NCBI RefSeq assembly: GCF_028623165.1
Contig: NZ_CP117768.1
Span: 806,001 to 870,000 of the forward strand
Reading direction: 5' to 3'
Length of the DNA stretch: 64,000 nt
DNA from: Nostoc sp. UHCC 0926
GTDB lineage: Bacteria; Cyanobacteriota; Cyanobacteriia; Cyanobacteriales; Nostocaceae
The notes beneath the pieces were generated by a model that was not told the DNA's origin, did not search any database, and saw only the letters and a list, made by a program, of their open reading frames with translations. The translations under genes and the position numbers were made by a program. Positions 4,601 to 57,877 of the stretch are shown piece by piece; position 1 is the stretch's first letter; each line of letters begins with the position of its first letter.

Positions 4601-7600
4601 CTCGTTCAATGGTAAGCCTTTCACCACTCCAAGCGATCGCAGCCCTCAGAGGTCGCTCAAGACCAGGGATACCTTGGGATAATTGCACCTGTCCAGCAGC
4701 ACGCACATCAGCTAATTTGGATGATCCTAGCGTGCCAGCTAATTGCAATTGACCGCCAAACTGACCTCGCAATTGCTGATTTAACCGATTTAATTCCACA
4801 CCTGAAGCATTAACTACACCTTGATAGCGACCATTAGCCACTTGGATATTAGAGGCTGCGATCGTTCCACCTGCAACATCCAGCCGTCCCTGACCACTGG
4901 CTTGGATAGTTTGCGGTTGGAAGGACTCAACAGAACCCGCGACGTTTAACTGACCATTTAACGCTCCCTGGAACTGCTTTGGTACTGCTACCAACTGCTG
5001 CAACGGTACATTATTTGCCTGGACTTGCGCCCGATATACACCATTAGCAAGTTGGATATTAGAGGCTGTAATAGTCCCACCCGCAACATTTACCCGCGCC
5101 TGACCGCTAGCTTGAATAGTTTGCAGTTTAAAAGAATCAACAGAACCCGCGACGTTGAACTGACCATTTAACGCTCCTTGGAACTGCTTTGGTACTGTTG
5201 CCAACTGCTGCACAGGCACATTCTTAGCTTGAACTTGCGCCTGATACACACCATTAGCCACTTGGATATTAGAGGCTGTAATAGTCCCACCCGCCACATT
5301 TACCCGTGCTTGACCACTGGCTTGAATATTTTGCGGTTTAAAAGGATCAACAGAACCCGCGACGTTGAACTGACCATTTAAGGCTCCTTGGAACTGCTTT
5401 GGTAGTGTTGCCAACTGCTGCACAGGCACATTCTTAGCCTGAACTTGCGCCTGATATACACCATTAGCCACTTGAATATTTTTAGCTGTAACCGTTCCAC
5501 CGCCAATAGCAAGGCTACCTTCACCACTGCCACGCAGGGTTTTCAGGCTGAAATTATCTCTGTTGCCTGCTATTTGGAACGTACCCGCCAATGGATTATT
5601 TAAAGCTGGGGGAGACTGTTTCAATATTTGTCCCAACCGCACACCATTAGCTACAAGTTGAGCAGAGAAGCTTTGGTCTTGCAGTTGGACATTAGACACT
5701 GCAACTATGCCGCCACCAATTTGAACTCCTCCACCATCAGTGCGAATCGTGGCAATTTCAAATGGTGCTGTGCTTCCTGAGAGAATGAGACGACCATTGA
5801 ACTGTGCCCCAGCCAAAGAGACATTTTGCAGTTGACTTTTGTCTACAAAGGGTTCCAATTTTACCCCAGAGGCAACAGCCACAGTTTGCCAACGCTGATT
5901 GGCGTAACTACCAGTTGCCCGTACCGTACCACCACTTACATTAAGAGCTACATTGCGGAAGGAGACGGTACGATTTGGAGCGATTGCGACTTCGCCAGTT
6001 CCAGGGTAAGTTCCATTTGGAGCTTGAAACTGTACCACAGTTTGGACATTGGTAGGAGCGCCGATTAATTGGGCTGTAGCTGAGACATTGCCGATTTGAA
6101 AAGTGGGTGTTGTTTGATAAACTTTTGCGATCGCATCCCCTGGAACATTCTTGGCGGCGAAATTTAAATCCAGTCGCGGGGTTTTACCAAGTTGAATTGT
6201 GCCAGCGCCCGTGATTTCACCACCGACTTTGGCTTTACCTTGAATATCTTTTAGGGTAATTAAAGAGGAACTAGTAACAAGCTCAAACTTACTACTGATG
6301 CTATCAAAATCAACTTTATCAATCCGGGCAGTTTGGATTGTGGCAACTGAACCTGAGAGAATTGGCTCTTTAGTTGATCCAGTAATCTGCAAAGAAGCTT
6401 GTACTTGTCCAGCGATCGGCACAGGTAGTTTTACCTTTAGAGTCTCCTGGGCATTAGCCAAACTCACCGCATTTACACGCCCCGCCAACTTAAAACCTGC
6501 TTGGGTGTCGATGATTCCCGTAGCCACTAGGGGAATTTTGCCGTAGTTGGTATTAACATTGTTTAACTGCAACTCCGTTCCCTGGAAGCGGAGGTTTCCT
6601 TGAGTATTGCTCAACAGTTGCGGGACTTTGGGTATTTGAAGTGTTACCCCTTGTACAGCAGCGCTGCCAAACAATAAAGTCCGCTGTCCTGGTGTCAACC
6701 GAACTAACAAGTCGCCATTGGCTCGACCCGCCTGTAAGCTCACTGGTAACTTAATCAACCGAGTAATATCCTCAGCCAAGAAGTCTTGTGCTCGCAACTG
6801 GAAGTTGCCTGCTAGCACCTTGGAACGTGTCTCTCCCTGAATGGAAATACTGCCACCACTGTCTGCTTGACCCCCGACATCAAACCTGATCAACTGGTTG
6901 TTTGCTAAAAGTTGGGCAGAACCGTTGATTTGAGAAAATCCCACGGGTAAGTGCTGAGTTTTGTTAGCGGATAGCTGTTGTTTAGCCCGTGCTGAGTTAG
7001 AAGTTGGGTATTCTCCTTTGCCCCCCTGGTTACTGAGCGCAGTCGTTGGCGCAGCCTCTCCAAGAGTTGTATGCCCCTCTGCCCCCCTGTTCTGCGGCAT
7101 CAACGCCAGCTTGGCATTGTGAAACCGTAGTTTGTCCAAATCGGTTTTAATAGCGCCGCCTTCACCTGACGACACGATGTTAGTGGAAAGCCAGCGCCCT
7201 TGGTCATCCTGTTGAATGTAAATATCTGGATTGACTAAGGTGACATCTAGCTTTAAGTGGTGATTAAAGATTAGTTGTAACAGGTCAAAACCTACCTCTA
7301 CAACTTCGACTGTGGCCCGATCTGGATCTGTGGGTGTCGCTGGGATAGCTGAAGCCCCAAATTCCACTCCCGTCAACGAAAATTGTGTGACTCTTCCCAG
7401 TTTTACCGGACGGTTGAGGGTAGTCGTGAGACTTTGTTGTGCCAACGGCGTTAACTCTGTTTGAACAAAAGTCCACAACCGCCAAATACCAACAACAATT
7501 CCTAACAGTAAAAGTCCACCCAAGGCAATGCTACCGCGACTCAACACCAGCAACCATAGACGCTTGCGGATAGGGGACGGGAAGTGAATATCTTGATTGG

Positions 7601-8381: not shown

Positions 8382-9308
8382 ATGACAAACTTGCAGGAAC
8401 GCGGGCATCTTTTAACCGAGCTGGTAAATCCTAACAGTCTGAACTTAGACCAGCTCAGTTCTCTGGAATTGGTGGAGCTGTTTAATAGCGAAGACCAAAA
8501 AGCAGTCGCGGCGGTGGCAGCGGCGAAAGTTCAGTTGGCAGAGGCTATTGATAGCACCGCAGAGCGTTTGCGCCACGGCGGACGCCTATTTTATATTGGT
8601 GCCGGCACAAGTGGCAGGTTAGGGGTGTTAGACGCTGCTGAGTGTCCACCTACTTTTTGTACGCCCCCAGAGTTGGTACAGGGGATTATTGCTGGTGGTG
8701 CAGGTGCGCTGGTACGCAGTTCAGAGGATTTAGAAGACAGCATCGAAGATGGTGAGGCGGCGATCGCTGGGCGACACATTACCCAGCTAGATGTAGTAGT
8801 AGGTATTACCGCTGGTGGTACAACGCCATTTGTCCACGGTGCGCTTCATGCTGCTCGTCAGCGGGGAGCCACTACTATTTTTATCGCCTGTGTTCCAGCT
8901 GAACAAGTTAGCTTTGATGCCGATATTGACATTCGCCTATTGACAGGACCAGAGATAATCGCTGGCTCAACTCGCCTGAAAGCTGGTACAGCCACTAAGT
9001 TAGCTTTAAATATCCTTTCCACTGGGGTGATGGTCAAGTTGGGTAAAGTTTACGGCAATCGGATGGTGGATGTGGCGGTAACAAATCAAAAGTTACGCGA
9101 TCGCGCTTTGCAAATTTTGCAAGACCTCACAGGCTTAAGTCGGGAAGCTGCTGGTTTTTTATTAGAACGTAGTGGCAAGTGGGTTAAGCTAGCGTTATTA
9201 ATGCACTGGACTGGTTTGGAAAAAGACGAGGGCGATCGGCTTCTTTCAGAACACCAAAGTAATCTTAAAGCAGCTATTGTGAGTTATCAAAACCACAACC
9301 AACCTTAA
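8382..9308 (+). CDS. murQ: N-acetylmuramic acid 6-phosphate etherase
   Basis: This 308-residue protein cleaves the lactyl ether of N-acetylmuramic acid 6-phosphate to give N-acetylglucosamine 6-phosphate and D-lactate during cell-wall recycling. It matches the MurQ family throughout: the N-terminal EQRN-like start (LQERGHLLTELVNPNSLNLD), the SIS sugar-phosphate fold with GAGTSGRLGVLDAAECPPTF near residue 75, and the second loop VGITAGGTTPFVHGAL. Length is normal for the family (about 300). AnmK or the transporter, common partners elsewhere, are not next to it. A probable terminator follows at 9343. Confidence 0.93.
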   Translation: MTNLQERGHLLTELVNPNSLNLDQLSSLELVELFNSEDQKAVAAVAAAKVQLAEAIDSTAERLRHGGRLFYIGAGTSGRLGVLDAAECPPTFCTPPELVQGIIAGGAGALVRSSEDLEDSIEDGEAAIAGRHITQLDVVVGITAGGTTPFVHGALHAARQRGATTIFIACVPAEQVSFDADIDIRLLTGPEIIAGSTRLKAGTATKLALNILSTGVMVKLGKVYGNRMVDVAVTNQKLRDRALQILQDLTGLSREAAGFLLERSGKWVKLALLMHWTGLEKDEGDRLLSEHQSNLKAAIVSYQNHNQP

Positions 9309-11048: not shown

Positions 11049-11638
11049 GGGAATTAAAGGCTATTTATAAACAAAATATTAAGTGTAGAGTGTGTGACGG
11101 TGCTACGTTGATACTGCAAGTAAAAAAATAAATAAAAATGCCGCCATGCAGTATGTGTTTTTGGTACGTTACGCTCCGCTTTAACCCACACTGTAAGTTT
11201 AATAATTACTTGATAAATGGTCTATTAGTAATTTTCATTGACGATTATTCATCAGAAAATTTGATTAACTTTAAAACTTAATTCCTGAATATAAAGCTAT
11301 TAGTAATAGCCCTAAAGAAATTTATTTTATAATTTATAGACTTTTCCACTTCAGTAGAAATTAAATTATTGAGGTGACAAAACTATTTAGTATTTAATAT
11401 ATATTAAGTTATGTTTATTACGTACTTTTTCTGAGGTTGATGCATAAAGATTGAATCAAAATTAGATAAATACAAGTTTTTGTATTTATGGCAGTCCTAT
11501 TTGAGTTATGAAATATTGGTTATGTGAAAGGGGTTAGGGGCTAGTCTCTAGTCCCTTCCATGTCTTTGTTGAGGAATCATTTAGGATTTGTATGTCTAAT
11601 TTGTTTACATTCTGATAAAACTTTAACGAGTAATTGCC
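11049..11638. other. Intergenic region between pixG and pixH
   Basis: This 590-base AT-rich gap is unusually long for an operon. Near 11150-11190 it carries a fragment of a common dispersed repeat (GTTACGCTCCGCTTTAACCC). At 11535-11553 there is a weak inverted repeat around GGGGCTAGTCTCTAGTCCC followed by T-rich sequence, possibly a terminator or attenuator. No open frame stands out. The gap suggests pixG may have its own transcript. Confidence 0.5.
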
Positions 11639-50697: not shown

Positions 50698-51003
50698 TGG
50701 TGGGTATAGCTAAAAGTATTTGCTTGCGATCGCTATTGTTACATTGTCTGCAATCGTCTTTTTACAACAAAAATATTTATTTTCGCTATCTTTAGTCAGA
50801 TCGTACCGTAACAGTAGTTGGCAATTCTCAGGCGGTGTCGCTCAAGATAAGTACAGAAATTCTTCGCCTGCTTACCCAAAAATCGGTAAACAAAGCCTGG
50901 GCTGCCTCCGCTTACCCTTGCCACAATAGGATTTCAGCTTTTTTGAGCCGTTTGACGAAACCACCAACAATGCAAGAGATTTTCTTTATCGTTGAAACCA
51001 GTT

Positions 51004-51192
51004 AGGACTTACGCATTGACGCAAAATACAAAGTATGAAGGGCTTGAAAAACCACATCTGTCGTAGGGGCACAGCATTGCTGTGCCCCTACAGCGCGGGT
51101 TTACCGATCGTCAAAGAACAATTAATAAAGACCTGAAACGACCTATTTTCGTGAATACATACCATGATTAATTTGTACAGTGCGTAAGTCCT
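51004..51192. mobile_element. Miniature element with AGGACTTACGCA ends (copy 1)
   Basis: Perfect 12-bp terminal repeats AGGACTTACGCA (51004-51015) and TGCGTAAGTCCT (51181-51192) bound 189 bases. The interior has a perfect palindrome GTAGGGGCACAGCA (51063-51076) paired with 51078-51091. ACCAGT occurs just outside both ends, consistent with a target-site duplication. A second copy is at 58208-58373. Confidence 0.82.
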
Positions 51193-51309
51193 ACCAGTCT
51201 AAAATTCCCCACCAATGGAAAGGCGATGTCTACGACGGGCAACTCTTCGAGACGCGCAAGGAACGCCTACGCAAATTCTTTGACTAAATTCCATACTCAC
51301 TGAAGTTTA

Positions 51310-51350
51310 TTAATAATCAATAGTTGCATGTGCTAACTATTGATTATTAA
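51310..51350. repeat. AT-rich perfect hairpin upstream of mysD
   Basis: TTAATAATCAATAGTT (51310-51325) pairs perfectly with 51335-51350 around a 9-base loop, 236 bases before the mysD ATG. It could be an operator, a cruciform-forming site or the remains of an element. Confidence 0.7.
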
Positions 51351-51586
51351 CAAAGTTTCATATCTGATTTGTTTAGCAGTTTCGCACTCCAGACTAGTCT
51401 AAACTCCAGTAACGACTGAGGATTATTCAGTTTAAAAGTATATTTATATAGTAAAATAGCGATGCAATTTACCTATTACTCTTGTTTTTAGAGTTTCCGA
51501 TTCCGTTTTCAAAATCTTCTCACCTCAAGTTATTTTTTACAATCGCAGTTGTTATATAAAATATAACAGTAACTAGAAGATGAACC

Positions 51587-52615
51587 ATGCCAGTACTTCG
51601 TATCCTTCATTTAGCTGGGTCTGCATACAATGATTTTTACTGTGAATTGTCACGTAATTACGCCCAAAGCTGTATAATCGCTACGGCAAATTCATCGCTC
51701 TATGACTTTCTGATTGCATACATCACACCTGATGGTCAATGGCGATTTCCTGACTCTCTCAGTCTTGAAGATATTGCTGTCGCCAAACCGGTTTCTCTGT
51801 TAGATGCCATACACTTTATAACAGCGCAAAACATTGACGTTATGTTACCACAAATGTTTTGTCTCCCTGGAATGACTGAGTACCGGGCACTATTCGACCT
51901 GCTTAAAATCCCTTACATAGGGAATACTGCGGATGTCATGGCATTAACGGCTCACAAAGCCAGAACCAAAGCAATTGTCGCAGCAGCAGGGGTGAAAGTG
52001 CCTTTTGGAGAACTGCTCCGCCAAGGAGACGTTCCGACAATTACACCTCCAGTAGTCATCAAACCCGCAAATGCTGACAACTCTTTAGGGGTGTCCTTAG
52101 TCAAAGAAAAGAGTGAGTATGATGCTGCCTTGAAGAAAGCATTTGAATTTGCAGATGAGGTGATTGTAGAAACATTCATTGAAGCCGGTCGAGAAGTCAG
52201 ATGCGGTGCTATTGTCAAAGATGGGGAGCTAATCGGTTTACCCCTTGAAGAGTATCAGATAGACGCCCAAAACAGACCCATCCGCAGCTATACTGACAAA
52301 TTCAAAATACCCATTGAGGGCGACTTGGCTTCAACTGCTAAAAATTATGTCCCAGGTTGGATTGTAGATATTAATGACCCGATCACCCAAAAGGTTCAGC
52401 AAGAAGTTAAGAAGTGTCATTTGGCTTTGGGCTGTCGCCATTATAGTTTATTTGACTTTCGGATCGACCCACAGGGACAACCTTGGTTCTTAGAAGCCGG
52501 GTTGTTTTGTATTTTTGACCACAATGCGGTGATTTCCTGTACGGCGAACAAAGTGGGAATTCCTTTAAATGAGTTATTTATGACGATGATCAATCAAGCG
52601 TTGAGCATGAACTGA
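51587..52615 (+). CDS. mysD: D-Ala-D-Ala ligase-like ATP-grasp enzyme of mycosporine-like amino acid synthesis (MysD)
   Basis: This 342-residue ATP-grasp protein begins LRILHLAGSAYNDFYCELSR and contains MLPQMFCLPGMTEYRALFDL, IGNTADVMALTAHKARTKAI, PVVIKPANADNSLGVSLVKE and LFDFRIDPQGQPWFLEAGLF. These segments match my recollection of the N. punctiforme MysD (Npun_R5597) closely. MysD condenses an amino acid such as serine with mycosporine-glycine to give disubstituted sunscreens such as shinorine. Two mysC genes follow on the same strand after 134 bases. mysA and mysB, which make the core, are not in the window. Recognised from memory of the family, so the general ATP-grasp call is firmer than the exact amino acid specificity. 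Confidence 0.87.
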   Translation: MPVLRILHLAGSAYNDFYCELSRNYAQSCIIATANSSLYDFLIAYITPDGQWRFPDSLSLEDIAVAKPVSLLDAIHFITAQNIDVMLPQMFCLPGMTEYRALFDLLKIPYIGNTADVMALTAHKARTKAIVAAAGVKVPFGELLRQGDVPTITPPVVIKPANADNSLGVSLVKEKSEYDAALKKAFEFADEVIVETFIEAGREVRCGAIVKDGELIGLPLEEYQIDAQNRPIRSYTDKFKIPIEGDLASTAKNYVPGWIVDINDPITQKVQQEVKKCHLALGCRHYSLFDFRIDPQGQPWFLEAGLFCIFDHNAVISCTANKVGIPLNELFMTMINQALSMN

Positions 52616-52749
52616 TTTGTGGAAAATCACCTTTTTAGCTTTCTTCTAACTTGGAAGAAGCTAATAAGCATTTATAGCAACATATTGCTTATTTCCTTTA
52701 TTTTTATCTAGCTATGCCACTTAATCATTAACTTGTCACAATTACAACT

Positions 52750-54129
52750 ATGAGAGAGCAGATTTTTGCAATATTCCAAAACTTGGGCACTCTTGCATTA
52801 CTGGCGATCGCATTTCCCTTTAACTGCACCGTCGTACTCGCATCGCTGCTGTGGAATTTTTTCAGCCGACTGTTCAGCAAGCAAGTGGTTTTGAACGAGA
52901 ATCCGAAAAATATCTTGATCGGTGGTGGTAGAATGACCAAAACCCTTCAGTTGGCGCGATCATTTCACGCTGCTGGGCATCGAGTCATTTTATTTGATCT
53001 CGACCAATACTGGTTCAGTGGTTATCGATTTTCCAACTCTGTGGCTGGCTTTTACACAGTTCCTGACTCCCAAGAAGACTTAGAAGGCTATACTCAAGCC
53101 GTGCGGGCGATCGCTAAAAAAGAAAACATAGACTTTTTTGTCCCGGTAGGCATTTTTGCAGCCAGCTACTTTGACTCTGAGCGCAAGCCAGTGTTATCAG
53201 GCTGTTGCGAGAATTTCCACTTCGATGCTGAAACAATGAAGATGCTGGATAACAAGTTTACCTTTGCAGAAATTGCCCGCTCACTCTCGCTATCTGTCCC
53301 GAAAACCTTCCTAATTACTGATTCAGAACTTGTTCTTAAATTCGACTTTGCCAACGAAAAGCACAAATATATTCTCAAAAGTATTGTCTATGACTCTGTT
53401 TTACGCTTGGATCTGACTAAGCTACCAATGGAGTCTTACGAAAAAATGGCGCTTCATCTTAAAAGTAAGCCAATTACTAAAGATAACCCTTGGATATTGC
53501 AAGAGTTTATTCCCGGAACAGAATATTGTACTCACAGTACAGTGAGAAATGGGGAATTAACGGTACACTGTTGCTGCGAATCATCTGCTTTTCAAGTCAA
53601 TTACGAAAACGTTGATCACCCAGAAATTCAAGAGTGGGTGAGTCATTTTGTCAAAGAATTACAACTGACTGGACAAATTTCTTTTGACTTCATTCAGGCG
53701 GAAGATGGGACAATTTATGCGATCGAGTGCAACGCTCGTGCTCACTCTGCAATTACAATGTATTACAATCATCCAGGTTTAGCGGATGCCTATCTCAATC
53801 AGGAGCCTCTGGCTGAACCTCTGCAACCCCTGAGTAATAGTAAGCCTACTTATTGGCTTTATCACGAACTTTGGAGACTTAATGAAATTAGATCGTTAAA
53901 GCAGTTAAAAAAGTGGTTTAAAAATATTTTGCGAGGAAAAGATGCAATATTTGAAATTAACGATCCACTACCGTTTTTAATGGTACATCACTGGCACATT
54001 CCTTTACTATTACTCGATAGTTTGCGCTCCTTAAGAACTTGGGTGAGGATTGATTTTTGCATCGGGAAACTCATCCAGTTTGGAGAAGACGTAAAATATA
54101 AAACCTCTACCTCTGCAACCTCTAAGTAA
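52750..54129 (+). CDS. mysC: ATP-grasp ligase MysC (mycosporine-glycine synthase), copy 1
   Basis: This 459-residue ATP-grasp enzyme has an N-terminal hydrophobic region (FQNLGTLALLAIAFPFNCTV, then VLASLLWNFF). MysC signatures follow: ILIGGGRMTKTLQLARSFHA, AGHRVILFDLDQYWFSGYRF, KYILKSIVYDSVLRLDLTKL, ILQEFIPGTEYCTHSTVRNG, SFDFIQAEDGTIYAIECNAR and AHSAITMYYNHPGLADAYL. MysC joins glycine to 4-deoxygadusol. The C-terminal end is odd: after IGKLIQFGEDVKYK the last eight residues (TSTSATSK) come from the junction with a decayed duplicate of the gene's own 3' end. Start ATG at 52750 is preceded by GTCACAATTACAACT, which is nearly repeated before copy 2. Confidence 0.88.
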   Translation: MREQIFAIFQNLGTLALLAIAFPFNCTVVLASLLWNFFSRLFSKQVVLNENPKNILIGGGRMTKTLQLARSFHAAGHRVILFDLDQYWFSGYRFSNSVAGFYTVPDSQEDLEGYTQAVRAIAKKENIDFFVPVGIFAASYFDSERKPVLSGCCENFHFDAETMKMLDNKFTFAEIARSLSLSVPKTFLITDSELVLKFDFANEKHKYILKSIVYDSVLRLDLTKLPMESYEKMALHLKSKPITKDNPWILQEFIPGTEYCTHSTVRNGELTVHCCCESSAFQVNYENVDHPEIQEWVSHFVKELQLTGQISFDFIQAEDGTIYAIECNARAHSAITMYYNHPGLADAYLNQEPLAEPLQPLSNSKPTYWLYHELWRLNEIRSLKQLKKWFKNILRGKDAIFEINDPLPFLMVHHWHIPLLLLDSLRSLRTWVRIDFCIGKLIQFGEDVKYKTSTSATSK

Positions 54130-54480
54130 TAGTAAGCCCAGTTATCGGCTTGCTCACGAACTTTAGAGACTTAATAGACCTGTCCTAAAATTAAATTTGC
54201 GTAAAGATAGAATATAAAAATAGTCAACCTTTAAAACCCTTGTACAGACTGAGTTATAAAATTCTGGACAAGTCTAATGAAATTAGCTCGTTAAAGCAGT
54301 TGCAATTATTGATTTAAAAATATTTTGCGAGGAAAGGATGCAATCTTTGATTTTAACAACCTACTACCGTTATTAATGGTACATCACTGGCACATTCCTT
54401 TACTATTACTCGATAATCTCGTTACAAGGTTGGGTAAGGATTGATTTCAACATCGGGAAACTCGTGCAGTTTAGAGAATG
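54109..54480 (+). pseudogene. Decayed third copy of the mysC 3' end, interrupted by a 100-bp element
   Basis: From about 54109 the sequence repeats the last 270 bases of mysC copy 1 (AGTAATAGTAAGCC, CTCACGAACTTTAGAGACTT, ATTAATGGTACATCACTGGC, ACATTCCTTTACTATTACTC), with stops and frame changes. It ends with GATTTCAACATCGGGAAACT and TTTAGAGAATGA. It is interrupted at 54176-54275 by a miniature element. The bases around TGGTACATCACTGGCACATT are identical to copy 1 and differ from copy 2, so it derives from copy 1. Confidence 0.88.
54176..54275. mobile_element. 100-bp miniature element inserted in the mysC remnant
   Basis: The ends AGACCTGTCC (54176-54185) and GGACAAGTCT (54266-54275) are inverted repeats with one mismatch. 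Removing the element and one AAT restores CTTAATGAAATTAG, exactly the sequence in intact mysC. AAT (or TAAT) flanks both sides, so the insertion and its target duplication are visible. It has no coding capacity and must be moved by a transposase encoded elsewhere. Confidence 0.85.
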
Positions 54481-54967
54481 AGTTTGCTTGCCATCTTTGG
54501 CTTTGCTCCCCAGGTTAAATACCATTCGAGAAAGCAAACTAAGGAATTTTTATCCCAGATTGCTTGGAGTGCGCTCGGAAATGCTGTATTTTTAATAATG
54601 AGGTAAATGTTGCATTTTGGAAGCATAACAGCATCACTATGCCAATTCATCTGGTCACGCTCGCCAACGACAATTTGTTGGCTTTTATTGGATTCATCTG
54701 TGTGGACAACACATTGCTTCAAGGGCAAGTTTACTTGCGCTCAGAGGAGCGATCCAAAAATGGAGAGGCTATCGCTTGTTGCAATCGCATCGTCAAAGAT
54801 GATTCCGGGTCCGGTGTAAGTGTTCGGTGTCAATTCGAGACGGCTTGAGGAGCATATATGCGAGTGTAGGAAAGCATGGAAGCAAGGGCAGGCTCATATC
54901 TGCTTGTCTCCTTAACCTTTTCCGATCCACCAGCGAATGATTCCACTATTATGTCACAATTATAATT
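54481..54967. other. Intergenic region between the mysC remnant and mysC copy 2
   Basis: About 487 bases with no recognised gene. Both strands carry frames of 85-94 codons (minus 54471-54728, plus 54564-54848) that show no family I know. They are interrupted relative to each other and are best treated as decayed DNA. The last 15 bases before the second mysC (GTCACAATTATAATT) match the upstream of the first, so the duplicated unit included its start region. Confidence 0.45.
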
Positions 54968-56296
54968 ATGAGAAAGCATATTTTTGTAGTGTTTCAAAAC
55001 TTGGGCACTCTTGTATTACTAGTGATCGCATTTCCCTTAAACTGCATCGTCGTCTTAACATCGCTACTGTGGAACTTTATTAAGCAACCATTTAGCAAGT
55101 CAACTGTTGTTAACCCCAATTCCAAAAATATCTTGATCGCTGGCGCGAGAATGACTAAAACCCTTCAGCTAGCGCGTTCATTTCATGCTGCTGGGCATCG
55201 GGTTATTATAATTGACATTGAGAAATTCTGGCCAAGTGGTAATAAATATTCCAACTCGGTTGCAGGCTTTTATACCGTTCCCGATCCAAGCAAAGACTTA
55301 GAAGGCTACGTTGAAACCCTACACGCGATCGCCAAAAAAGAAAAGATCGACTTTTTTATTCCGGTAGCGATTTTTTCCGTCATCCACTACGATCAAGGCA
55401 AGCCACCATTACCAGACTGTGTAGAGTTTTTCCACTTCGATGCTGATGTCACGAAGAGTCTGGATGACAAGTTTGCCTTTGCCGAAACAGCGCGATCGTT
55501 CGGTTTATCTGTCCCCAAATCCTTCAAAATTACCGATCCCGAACAAGTCATCAACTTTGACTTTTCTCAGGAGAAGTGCAAATACATTCTTAAAAGCATC
55601 CCCTACGATCAAATACGTCGCTTGAATCTCACCAAGCTACCTGGCGATACACCTGCACAAACAGCAGCATTTGTCAATAGTTTGCCGATCAGTGAGGAGA
55701 ATCCCTGGATTATGCAGGAATTCATCCCTGGAAAGGAATACTGCACTCACACCACCGCGCGAGATGGAGAGTCAAGAATGTACTGCTGCTGTGAGTCATC
55801 CGCCTTTCAAGTCAATTATGAAAACGTTGATCAGCGAGAAATTATGCAATGGGCGAGTCATTTTACCAAAGAACTGGGAAAAACTGGTCAACTTTCCTTT
55901 GACTTCATCCAGGCAGAAGACGGAACTGTTTACGCGATTGAGTGTAACCCCCGGACTCACTCCGCCATTACTATGTTTTACAATCATCCAGGAGTAGCGG
56001 ATGCCTATCTTGGTAAAGAGCCTCTGGCTGAATCTTTGCAGCCTCTTGGTGATAGTAAGCCAACCTATTGGCTGTACCACGAAGTTTGGCGGCTGAATGA
56101 GATTAGATCGTTTAAGCAACTGCAAACCTGGGTAAGAAACATCAGGCGGGGGAAAGAAGCAATTTTTGAGGTGAGTGATCCCTTACCCTTCCTGATAGTA
56201 CATCACTGGCAGATTCCCTTACTGATTCTTGATAATTTACGAAGACTCAAAGGTTGGATAAGAATAGACTTTAATATGGGCGAGCTTATAGAGTGA
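54968..56296 (+). CDS. mysC: ATP-grasp ligase MysC (mycosporine-glycine synthase), copy 2
   Basis: This 442-residue paralogue of the preceding mysC has the same domain order and signatures: ILIAGARMTKTLQLARSFHA, WPSGNKYSNSVAGFYTVPDP, FAETARSFGLSVPKSFKITD, IMQEFIPGKEYCTHTTARDG, SFDFIQAEDGTVYAIECNPR and THSAITMFYNHPGVADAYLG. It ends normally at WIRIDFNMGELIE. It seems closer to my recollection of canonical MysC than copy 1 (for example the THSAITMFYNHPGVA segment). The two copies may differ in amino acid choice or be redundant; the sequence alone cannot say. Confidence 0.87.
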   Translation: MRKHIFVVFQNLGTLVLLVIAFPLNCIVVLTSLLWNFIKQPFSKSTVVNPNSKNILIAGARMTKTLQLARSFHAAGHRVIIIDIEKFWPSGNKYSNSVAGFYTVPDPSKDLEGYVETLHAIAKKEKIDFFIPVAIFSVIHYDQGKPPLPDCVEFFHFDADVTKSLDDKFAFAETARSFGLSVPKSFKITDPEQVINFDFSQEKCKYILKSIPYDQIRRLNLTKLPGDTPAQTAAFVNSLPISEENPWIMQEFIPGKEYCTHTTARDGESRMYCCCESSAFQVNYENVDQREIMQWASHFTKELGKTGQLSFDFIQAEDGTVYAIECNPRTHSAITMFYNHPGVADAYLGKEPLAESLQPLGDSKPTYWLYHEVWRLNEIRSFKQLQTWVRNIRRGKEAIFEVSDPLPFLIVHHWQIPLLILDNLRRLKGWIRIDFNMGELIE

Positions 56297-56788
56297 TACC
56301 AATCCGCATTCTAAAACGTAATATTGGTAAAATGAAAAACTAGAACAGTAATTGCCAATAGTGGTTTCTCAGCAGGAGGTATTGATAGAAGCATTCCTAA
56401 TTTGTATTAGAATTTGTACCCGCATATAGTCCTGATTACAACATCATTGAATTAGCCTGGTATTCATGTAAGGAATACATTGCTCATTGTCTATTTCAAT
56501 CAGTAGATGAGTTGAAGTATTTACTAGATAAGCTATTCAATTAGGATGAGTTAGTCATTAAGTGGCATAGGAAAATCAAAAAAAAAAGGGAAATAGAGAC
56601 GGGTGCATCCCAGTTTTTATTTTGCGACGAGAGAATAACTGTCATTGCGTTCGCGTAGCGTCTCGTAGAGAGGAGGAACGACGTTCGCGCAGCGGTACCC
56701 TGACTCCCTATTTATAGTGATTATCATTATTTATACTGGAATATATTATTTTTTGAAAGTCCCTAACTTTCATGTAGTGCATATAGGC
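56297..56788. other. Intergenic region with IS630 remnant and dispersed repeat
   Basis: Contains a decayed IS630-type transposase end (56380-56590) and, at about 56605-56695, a dispersed repeat related to 40361-40450 (TTTTTATTTTGCGACGAGAG, AACTGTCATTGC). No intact gene is present. Confidence 0.6.
56380..56590 (+). pseudogene. IS630-type transposase C-terminal remnant
   Basis: The frame from 56410 reads EFVPAYSPDYNIIELAWYSC, then KEYIAHCLFQSVDELKYLLD, KLFN, stop, DELVIKWHRKIKKK. The block PAYSPDxNxIE is the DDE-type transposase end of the IS630 family, including the last catalytic Glu. An internal stop and the lack of the first two thirds show that it is dead. Confidence 0.8.
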
Positions 56789-57877
56789 TCAATGCCTATT
56801 CTTCCTGTGTTTAACGGTTGTAGCACTAGTGACTTCCAACTCATCATACTTATTGACTTTGTAGATGATGGTCGAAAGTAACCAACTTAATACAAAGATG
56901 GCAATGATTAAGTAACCAATTGTGCCAAAGTTATCACCTAGTTGACTAATGAAATCCCAAAACGGACTTTTCAGTTGTAACTGATCGCCAATAATGTTGA
57001 GAGCCTCAATTCCGCCAATGATCACAGCAACTAGTACAGAAACAAGGGTGATGGTCATGTTGTAGTAGAGCTTGCGGATTGGTTTTACGTAAGCCCAGCC
57101 ATAAGCACCAAGCATTAAAATACCGTCAGTGGTGTCAATCAGGGACATACCTGCTGTGAACAAAGCTGGAAACAATAGGATCGACCAGATAGGCAAACCA
57201 AGAGTTGCTTGATTGGCAGAAATCCCTAGCAGTGCTACCTCTGTCGCCGTGTCGAAGCCTAAACCAAAAAGTAAACCTAAAGGAAACATTTTCCAGCTAC
57301 TATCTATCAACCGAAACAAAGGACGGAAGATGCGACCGAGTAGCCCACGTTGGTTCAAAAATTCATCTAAGGATTGCTCGTCGTAGATTCCTCCCTGCTT
57401 GACGCTTTGGAAGGTCTTATAAACATCCCACAGCACCACCATATTGATTGCTGCAATTGCTAATAGGAACAGTGCAGAAACGGTACTGCTAATTAGCCCT
57501 CCAACCTTTTCCAAACTGGGAAAGTCGTTATGGATGGTTGTAGTGGTTAAGGCGATCGCAACAGAGGCGGCAATTACAACCGTGGAATGACCTAGAGAGA
57601 AGAAGAACCCAACAGAAACAGGTCGTTTGTTCTCCTGCATCAATTTACGGGTAACATTGTCAATCGCAGCGATGTGATCGGCATCTACAGCATGACGTAG
57701 ACCAAAGGTATAAGCTAATACGGCAGTGCCAAGCAGAAGGGGGTAGCGATGGAATGTTATCAGAGCAACTACCCAGACTAAAATATTCACGCCAATCAGG
57801 AAGGCATAAATGTTGATAACTTTACGTCTAACGTTTCTGGAACTATCGTTAAAAACACGCGAAAATCCGGATAGCAT
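56789..57877 (-). CDS. Nickel/cobalt permease of the NiCoT (HoxN/NixA) family
   Basis: This 362-residue membrane protein has about eight hydrophobic segments and the NiCoT fingerprints: RHAVDADHIAAIDN with His62, FFFSLGHSTVVIAAS near 92, and LLFGLGFDTATEVALLG near 205. It imports Ni2+ or Co2+, which Nostoc needs for hydrogenase, urease and cobalamin. Which metal it prefers cannot be read from the sequence. I saw no cobalamin riboswitch or clear NikR-type site in the 300 bases upstream. It is a single gene. Confidence 0.9.
   Translation of the reverse strand: MLSGFSRVFNDSSRNVRRKVINIYAFLIGVNILVWVVALITFHRYPLLLGTAVLAYTFGLRHAVDADHIAAIDNVTRKLMQENKRPVSVGFFFSLGHSTVVIAASVAIALTTTTIHNDFPSLEKVGGLISSTVSALFLLAIAAINMVVLWDVYKTFQSVKQGGIYDEQSLDEFLNQRGLLGRIFRPLFRLIDSSWKMFPLGLLFGLGFDTATEVALLGISANQATLGLPIWSILLFPALFTAGMSLIDTTDGILMLGAYGWAYVKPIRKLYYNMTITLVSVLVAVIIGGIEALNIIGDQLQLKSPFWDFISQLGDNFGTIGYLIIAIFVLSWLLSTIIYKVNKYDELEVTSATTVKHRKNRH

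What the first reader, a model, noticed from the sequence alone, without database searches (positions are those of the whole stretch)
51587..56296. MAA ligase cluster with mysD and two mysC genes but no mysA or mysB
Usual MAA clusters place mysA and mysB (core synthesis) next to mysC and mysD. Here only the amino-acid-adding ATP-grasp enzymes occur, in the order mysD-mysC-mysC, flanked by unrelated genes and repeats. Two MysC enzymes could add different amino acids and give new MAAs, with the core made by genes at another locus, or the core could be fed by the 2-epi-5-epi-valiolone or shikimate routes.
Basis: partly seen in the sequence, partly recalled or inferred. Interest (0 to 1): 0.7.

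Follow-up and report, generated by a model that had tools for sequence, protein, structure and literature searches.

The report
Published split Nostoc sunscreen ligase cluster
These three genes are the published second half of a split sunscreen pathway in a lichen-dwelling Nostoc: they are thought to join three copies of a UV-absorbing core with two ornithines, while the core itself is made by genes elsewhere on the same chromosome.

Summary
In detail: window 51587-56296 holds intact mysD, mysC2 and mysC3, with no working mysA or mysB beside them. That paper (PMC10510106) already describes this 4.7-kb cluster, a separate mysA-mysB-mysC1 cluster and a plasmid mysFIE cluster, and links this one to tricore B (three 4-deoxygadusol cores, two ornithines). 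I confirmed that mysA, the only intact mysB and mysC1 lie together elsewhere on the chromosome. Trees put the two window MysC proteins in two well-supported clades shared with five-gene mysABDC2C3 clusters. A review of Zhang 2021 gives the division of labour: MysC3 adds ornithine to 4-deoxygadusol; MysC2 adds mycosporine-ornithine to a second one; MysD presumably makes the last bond. So it is already known. Not seen in the text I read: a decayed copy of the mysC2 3' end and a decayed mysB piece lie between mysC2 and mysC3, with similar scars in relatives, which suggests that the pair stems from duplicated or merged mysB-mysC units.

The parts
51515..51586 (+). mysD leader, still alike to the mysB-mysD spacer of five-gene clusters; upstream of about 51515 the likeness stops
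   Evidence: blastn 77-88% identity over 88-98 aligned bases (which include the first bases of mysD), all starting at the same query base, in 8 of the 11 named five-gene loci (L020, L021, L023, L024, L025, L030, L033, L043); of the other three, L022 matches over 39 bases, and L028 and L031 gave no match here
51587..52615 (+). mysD, ATP-grasp (D-Ala-D-Ala ligase-like) amine ligase; presumed maker of the imine bond to the central core
   Evidence: only close copy in the genome
52750..54129 (+). mysC2, ATP-grasp ligase of the C2 clade
   Evidence: dN/dS 0.15-0.27 against 17 relatives
54109..54478 (+). decayed partial copy of the mysC2 3' end; the last codons of mysC2 run into it and so give part of its C-terminal tail
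   Evidence: 84% and 88% DNA identity to mysC2 over 209 and 67 bases, 68% to mysC3 over 186 bases; repeats D3, D5, D6, D7; tblastn E 6e-15
54666..54806 (+). decayed mysB piece (MysB residues 211-257)
   Evidence: 68% identity, 65 bits, E 2e-15, against a best of 25.8 bits in 200 shuffles x 8 queries; also found by the own-genome search
54968..56296 (+). mysC3, ATP-grasp ligase of the C3 clade; presumed 4-deoxygadusol + ornithine ligase
   Evidence: dN/dS 0.10-0.25 against 18 relatives; model pLDDT 84.9 with ATP-grasp matches

Best explanation
This is the multi-chromophore branch of a discontiguous MAA pathway, as published for Nostoc sp. UHCC 0926. MysA and MysB, encoded elsewhere, make 4-deoxygadusol (4-DG). 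MysC3 condenses the side-chain amine of ornithine with 4-DG to give mycosporine-ornithine. MysC2 condenses the alpha-amine of mycosporine-ornithine with a second 4-DG. MysD joins the alpha-amine of another mycosporine-ornithine to the remaining carbonyl of that central core, making the imine. Three 4-DG plus two ornithine minus four water gives tricore B. MysC1 serves the separate glycine branch (aplysiapalythine E). Shown here: gene content, clades, single close MysD, single mysA-mysB locus, purifying selection, mass balance. From papers: the product, and the C2 and C3 activities (the latter only through a review, for other strains). Inferred: the role of MysD and the order of the last two bonds.
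For: The strain makes tricore B. MysC2 and MysC3 clades have 100/100 and 100/99 support in a 55-row tree. 11 of 59 named loci carry mysA-B-D-C2-C3 in one direction. 25 of the 26 Nostocaceae genomes (of 217 searched) with a MysC3 at 92% identity or more also have mysA; over all 217 it is 166. A review states the C2 and C3 reactions. Deleting mysC3 in N. flagelliforme removes MAAs and leaves 4-DG. 3 x 4-DG + 2 Orn - 4 H2O gives [M+H]+ 757.350, against m/z 757.35 reported.
Against: The UHCC 0926 paper gives another order: MysD links mycosporine-ornithine to a second 4-DG, then MysC2 or MysC3 adds a second ornithine, then MysD ends the chain; its compound 20 (2-mycosporine-2-ornithine) would not lie on my route. 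The original Zhang 2021 paper could not be read. In no text I saw was an enzyme of this strain assayed.
Confidence: 0.9

Rival explanations
1. Order as proposed for UHCC 0926: MysD couples mycosporine-ornithine to a second 4-DG, MysC2 or MysC3 adds the second ornithine to the core, and MysD ends the chain.
For: Proposed by the authors, with intermediates numbered after their LC-MS table; MysD is described as promiscuous.
Against: MysC is described as adding glycine to 4-DG and MysD as adding serine to the product of that step; the review of Zhang 2021 gives MysC2 the step that this scheme gives to MysD.
Confidence: 0.2
2. The two MysC enzymes add different amino acids and yield separate small MAAs.
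For: MysC3 is said to accept lysine as well as ornithine.
Against: Tricore B and its proposed intermediates contain ornithine only, and the review ties MysC2 strictly to mycosporine-ornithine.
Confidence: 0.05
3. A relic cluster that is no longer used.
For: Decayed mysC2 and mysB pieces lie inside it, and mysA and mysB are gone from the site.
Against: All three frames are intact; dN/dS is 0.10-0.27 for mysC2 and mysC3 and 0.21-0.61 for mysD; the strain makes tricore B.
Confidence: 0.03

Closest known systems
Nostoc sp. UHCC 0926 mysD-mysC2-mysC3 cluster (PMC10510106)
   Same: Same genome by size and contig count, same genes, same order of naming, same 4.7 kb
   Different: None known in the genes; the decayed mysB and mysC2 pieces between mysC2 and mysC3 are not mentioned in the main-text parts that I read (1-4 of 5)
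mysABDC2C3 cluster of Nostoc flagelliforme (PMC13131328, passages)
   Same: Ligases of the same names; a product of three 4-deoxygadusol units and two ornithines
   Different: There the five genes form one cluster; here mysA and mysB lie far away (2.7 Mb the short way round, if the contig is circular)
Canonical mysABCD (shinorine, porphyra-334) cluster
   Same: MysC- and MysD-type ATP-grasp ligases
   Different: Two diverged MysC paralogues in place of one glycine-type MysC; no core genes beside them

Membership tests
MysC (4-deoxygadusol-amine ATP-grasp ligase) | Sequence falls among MysC proteins of mysABC clusters | tested here: met
   Trees of 82 and 55 rows; 63% and 65% identity to MysC1
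MysC (4-deoxygadusol-amine ATP-grasp ligase) | ATP-grasp fold | tested here: met
   MysC3 model (pLDDT 84.9) matches biotin carboxylases and other ATP-grasp enzymes, best E 1.3e-13, TM about 0.5; MysC2 was not modelled
MysC (4-deoxygadusol-amine ATP-grasp ligase) | Ligase activity on 4-DG | not testable with these tools
   Only from a review of Zhang 2021 and a knockout in N. flagelliforme
[quoted passage not shown]
   PF07478 9.6e-19; homologues in the five-gene clusters
mysABDC2C3 tricore cluster | C2-clade and C3-clade mysC in tandem after mysD | tested here: met
mysABDC2C3 tricore cluster | mysA and mysB at the 5' end of the same cluster | tested here: not met
   mysA and mysB are at G000:C3:4778394-4780464; a decayed mysB piece remains at 54666-54806
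Canonical complete mysABCD cluster | All four core genes together | tested here: not met

The most novel reading that the evidence does not exclude
The mysC2-mysC3 pair did not arise by a simple doubling of mysC but from two mysB-mysC units (duplicated, or two clusters merged), whose extra mysB genes have since decayed. The scars can still be read: decayed mysB before mysC3 in this strain, and before both mysC genes in Brasilonema sp. CT11 (L027) and a kindred genome (L098), while mysA-mysB-mysC3-type clusters without mysC2 occur in other cyanobacteria (L037, L042). A shift from Ser-Pro in glycine-type MysC to Ile-Phe in all 46 C2 and C3 rows compared may mark the change towards ornithine chemistry.
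Probability: 0.5. Interest if true: 0.4.

Novelty: already known. Interest (0 to 1): 0.2.

Why it matters
The cluster is a published example of a natural-product pathway whose genes are spread over one genome yet are thought to work together. The added detail, decayed mysB and mysC2 pieces inside it and in relatives, offers a record of how a small sunscreen pathway grew into one that joins three chromophores, and the Ser-Pro to Ile-Phe shift points to residues to test for what makes a MysC choose ornithine.

Tried and rejected
Rejected: that a second complete mysABCD exists (one MysD at 100%, two further partial hits at 31-33%); that decayed mysA or mysB pieces lie in the spacers dynamin-sppA, sppA-idi, idi-mysD or after mysC3 (tblastn of eight Mys queries gave nothing at E 0.1). 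A promoter and terminator scan of 50700-56800 found no more sites than shuffles (10 against a mean of 12.5; 5 against 5.1) and was not used. A sequence search of solved structures gave D-Ala-D-Ala ligases for MysD and nothing meaningful for MysC2. The fold model did not settle where the Ile-Phe pair sits: residues 131-150 have mean pLDDT 67. Whether C2 and C3 are each other's closest kin is unresolved: there is no C2+C3 branch in the 55-row tree, and C2 joins the three orphan proteins with weak support (67/10).

Four proteins of the DHQ-synthase family are in the genome: AroB-like (L001), MysA (L004), and two of 398 and 400 aa (L002, L003) that I did not assign; at E 1e-80 the MysA query finds only MysA.

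Rows dropped: MysC rows under 400 aa (L071, L072, L074, L075) and identical rows (L102), L063, L064 and the L098 rows, 55 of 82 rows were used (long branches and near duplicates left out), 17 of 21 mysC2, 18 of 23 mysC3 and 11 of 13 mysD genes of that type in the named loci were compared.

Full report
Identity of the genome. The window lies in a genome of 8,314,159 bases in 7 contigs. The paper PMC10510106 (Nostoc sp. UHCC 0926; I read parts 1-4 of 5 of the main text, no supplement) reports 8,314,159 bp, one chromosome and six plasmids. It describes a 4.7-kb cluster with MysD, MysC2 and MysC3, an 8.2-kb cluster with MysA, MysB and MysC1, and a plasmid cluster mysF-mysI-mysE with a pseudo-mysC1. 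The window cluster, 51587-56296, is 4,710 bases long and holds three genes of those kinds. I take the finding to be the published cluster. A search for 'UHCC 0926' found three records, two listed; the second, PMC11378024 (part 1 of 6 and passages seen), cites the split pathway of this strain as a hypothesis.

What is there. MysD is of the D-Ala-D-Ala ligase family. The two MysC proteins pass the NCBIfam PRK06849 cut-off, and the MysC3 model is an ATP-grasp fold with a long N-terminal helix, residues 2-42. The genome has one protein close to MysD, three intact MysC genes, one MysA and one intact MysB (three other hits at 35-44% identity I take for other methyltransferases). MysA, MysB and MysC1 lie together at G000:C3:4778394-4782410, and mysF, mysI and a large NRPS frame (mysE by the paper) on contig C7. 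The two chromosomal loci are 3.9 Mb apart along the contig, 2.7 Mb the short way if it is circular.

Relatives. Of 59 named loci fetched with MysC3, 21 hold full C2-type and C3-type genes in tandem, and 11 hold mysA-mysB-mysD-mysC2-mysC3 in one direction. In a tree of 82 MysC rows the window proteins fall in the C2 clade (23 rows, SH-aLRT 100) and the C3 clade (25 rows at 99; 26 with the Fischerella protein at 96). In a 55-row tree with bootstraps the support is 100/100 and 100/99; the set C2+C3+Fischerella+three orphan proteins has 100/100, and C2+C3 alone is not a branch. MysC1 of this genome lies outside. Among 217 Nostocaceae genomes, 26 (this one included) have MysC3 at 92% identity or more. 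In 14 of the 26 mysA is within 20 kb on the same strand, in 3 within 20 kb on the other strand, in 8 elsewhere or on another contig (some are drafts), and in one draft no mysA was found at E 1e-80. So the split arrangement recurs but is the minority.

Is it in use. dN/dS (Nei-Gojobori, window gene against each relative) is 0.15-0.27 for mysC2 (17 relatives), 0.10-0.25 for mysC3 (18) and 0.21-0.61 for mysD (11; the high value is against L020, whose MysD is 78% identical). The strain makes tricore B.

Mechanism. [quoted passage not shown] the original is not held. A knockout of mysC3 in N. flagelliforme lost MAAs and gathered 4-deoxygadusol (PMC13131328, passages). That the window's C2 and C3 are the same-named genes of those papers rests on gene order and on the UHCC 0926 paper's naming, since no sequence of N. 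flagelliforme was compared by name here. Three cores and two ornithines joined by four condensations give 756.343 Da, [M+H]+ 757.350, the reported m/z being 757.35. Four bonds fit two uses of MysC3, one of MysC2 and one of MysD; that last assignment is inference. The UHCC 0926 authors propose another order, and their intermediate 20 speaks against mine as the only route.

Scars. Between mysC2 and mysC3 (838 bases) lie a decayed copy of the mysC2 3' end (54109-54478; 84-88% identical to mysC2 and 68% to mysC3) and a decayed mysB piece (54666-54806; 68% identity over 47 residues, 65 bits; the best of 200 shuffles with eight queries was 25.8 bits). Of 23 C2-C3 spacers examined (21 named loci, the window and L098), 11 hold a mysC scar and 5 a mysB scar (window, L018, L027, L033, L098; L033 weakly, E 6e-5); the other spacers show neither or only the mysC scar. 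A mysB match lies within 700 bases before mysC2 in 5 of 23 (L027, L029, L032, L038, L098), of which L038 has an intact mysB and L032 is weak (E 7e-4); L027 and L098 have decayed mysB before both mysC genes. I infer that the pair stems from two mysB-mysC units. A search with mycosporine, pseudogene, mysB and mysC (listing only) and the text read of PMC10510106 did not show me these scars, but its supplement and Zhang 2021 were not read.

Place on the chromosome. In L031 the order is dynamin-like gene, mysA-B-D-C2-C3, sppA, idi; L022 shows the same up to sppA, where the locus ends. In the window it is dynamin-like, sppA, idi, mysD-C2-C3. Likeness to the five-gene clusters begins about 72 bases before mysD. 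So the ligase half probably moved past sppA-idi and lost mysA-mysB; this is inference.

Positions. In 21 cyanobacterial MysC1-type rows Ser153-Pro154 (MysC1 numbering) hold at 86% each, and in 7 of 7 actinobacterial rows; all 22 C2, all 24 C3 and the four C3-like rows have Ile-Phe. This is one of many positions that differ between the groups, and whether it touches the substrate is untested.

Verdict. Observation confirmed, interpretation partly supported, already published; interest low apart from the scars.

Noticed in passing
L015 (G000:C7:750000-765000), 7072-7443: A decayed mysB end (MysB 254-274, with an in-frame stop, E 8e-5) lies just before the published pseudo-mysC1 and mysF-mysI-mysE on the plasmid, so that cluster was probably once part of a whole mysABC cluster.
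   Followed up: partly
L098, between mysC2 (ends near 9032) and the decayed mysB at 11366: A 642-aa open frame on the other strand, IlvD-like (dihydroxy-acid dehydratase) by my reading of its letters, sits between mysC2 and the decayed mysB before mysC3; the gap in L027 is of like size.
   Followed up: no
L039, L040, L041: Orphan MysC3-like genes (77-78% identity) with no mysA or mysB within the fetched stretch.
   Followed up: no
L046:1-3179: A contig labelled as a Tatlockia (Legionellaceae) MAG holds mysA-mysB-mysC, its MysC lying next to a Chlorogloea protein on very short branches; probably a mis-binned cyanobacterial contig.
   Followed up: no
window 51303-51357: An inverted repeat with 23-base arms (91% complementary, 9 bases between) about 230 bases before mysD.
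   Followed up: no
L002 and L003: Two further DHQ-synthase-family proteins (398 and 400 aa) of this genome, alike to each other, not assigned here.
   Followed up: no
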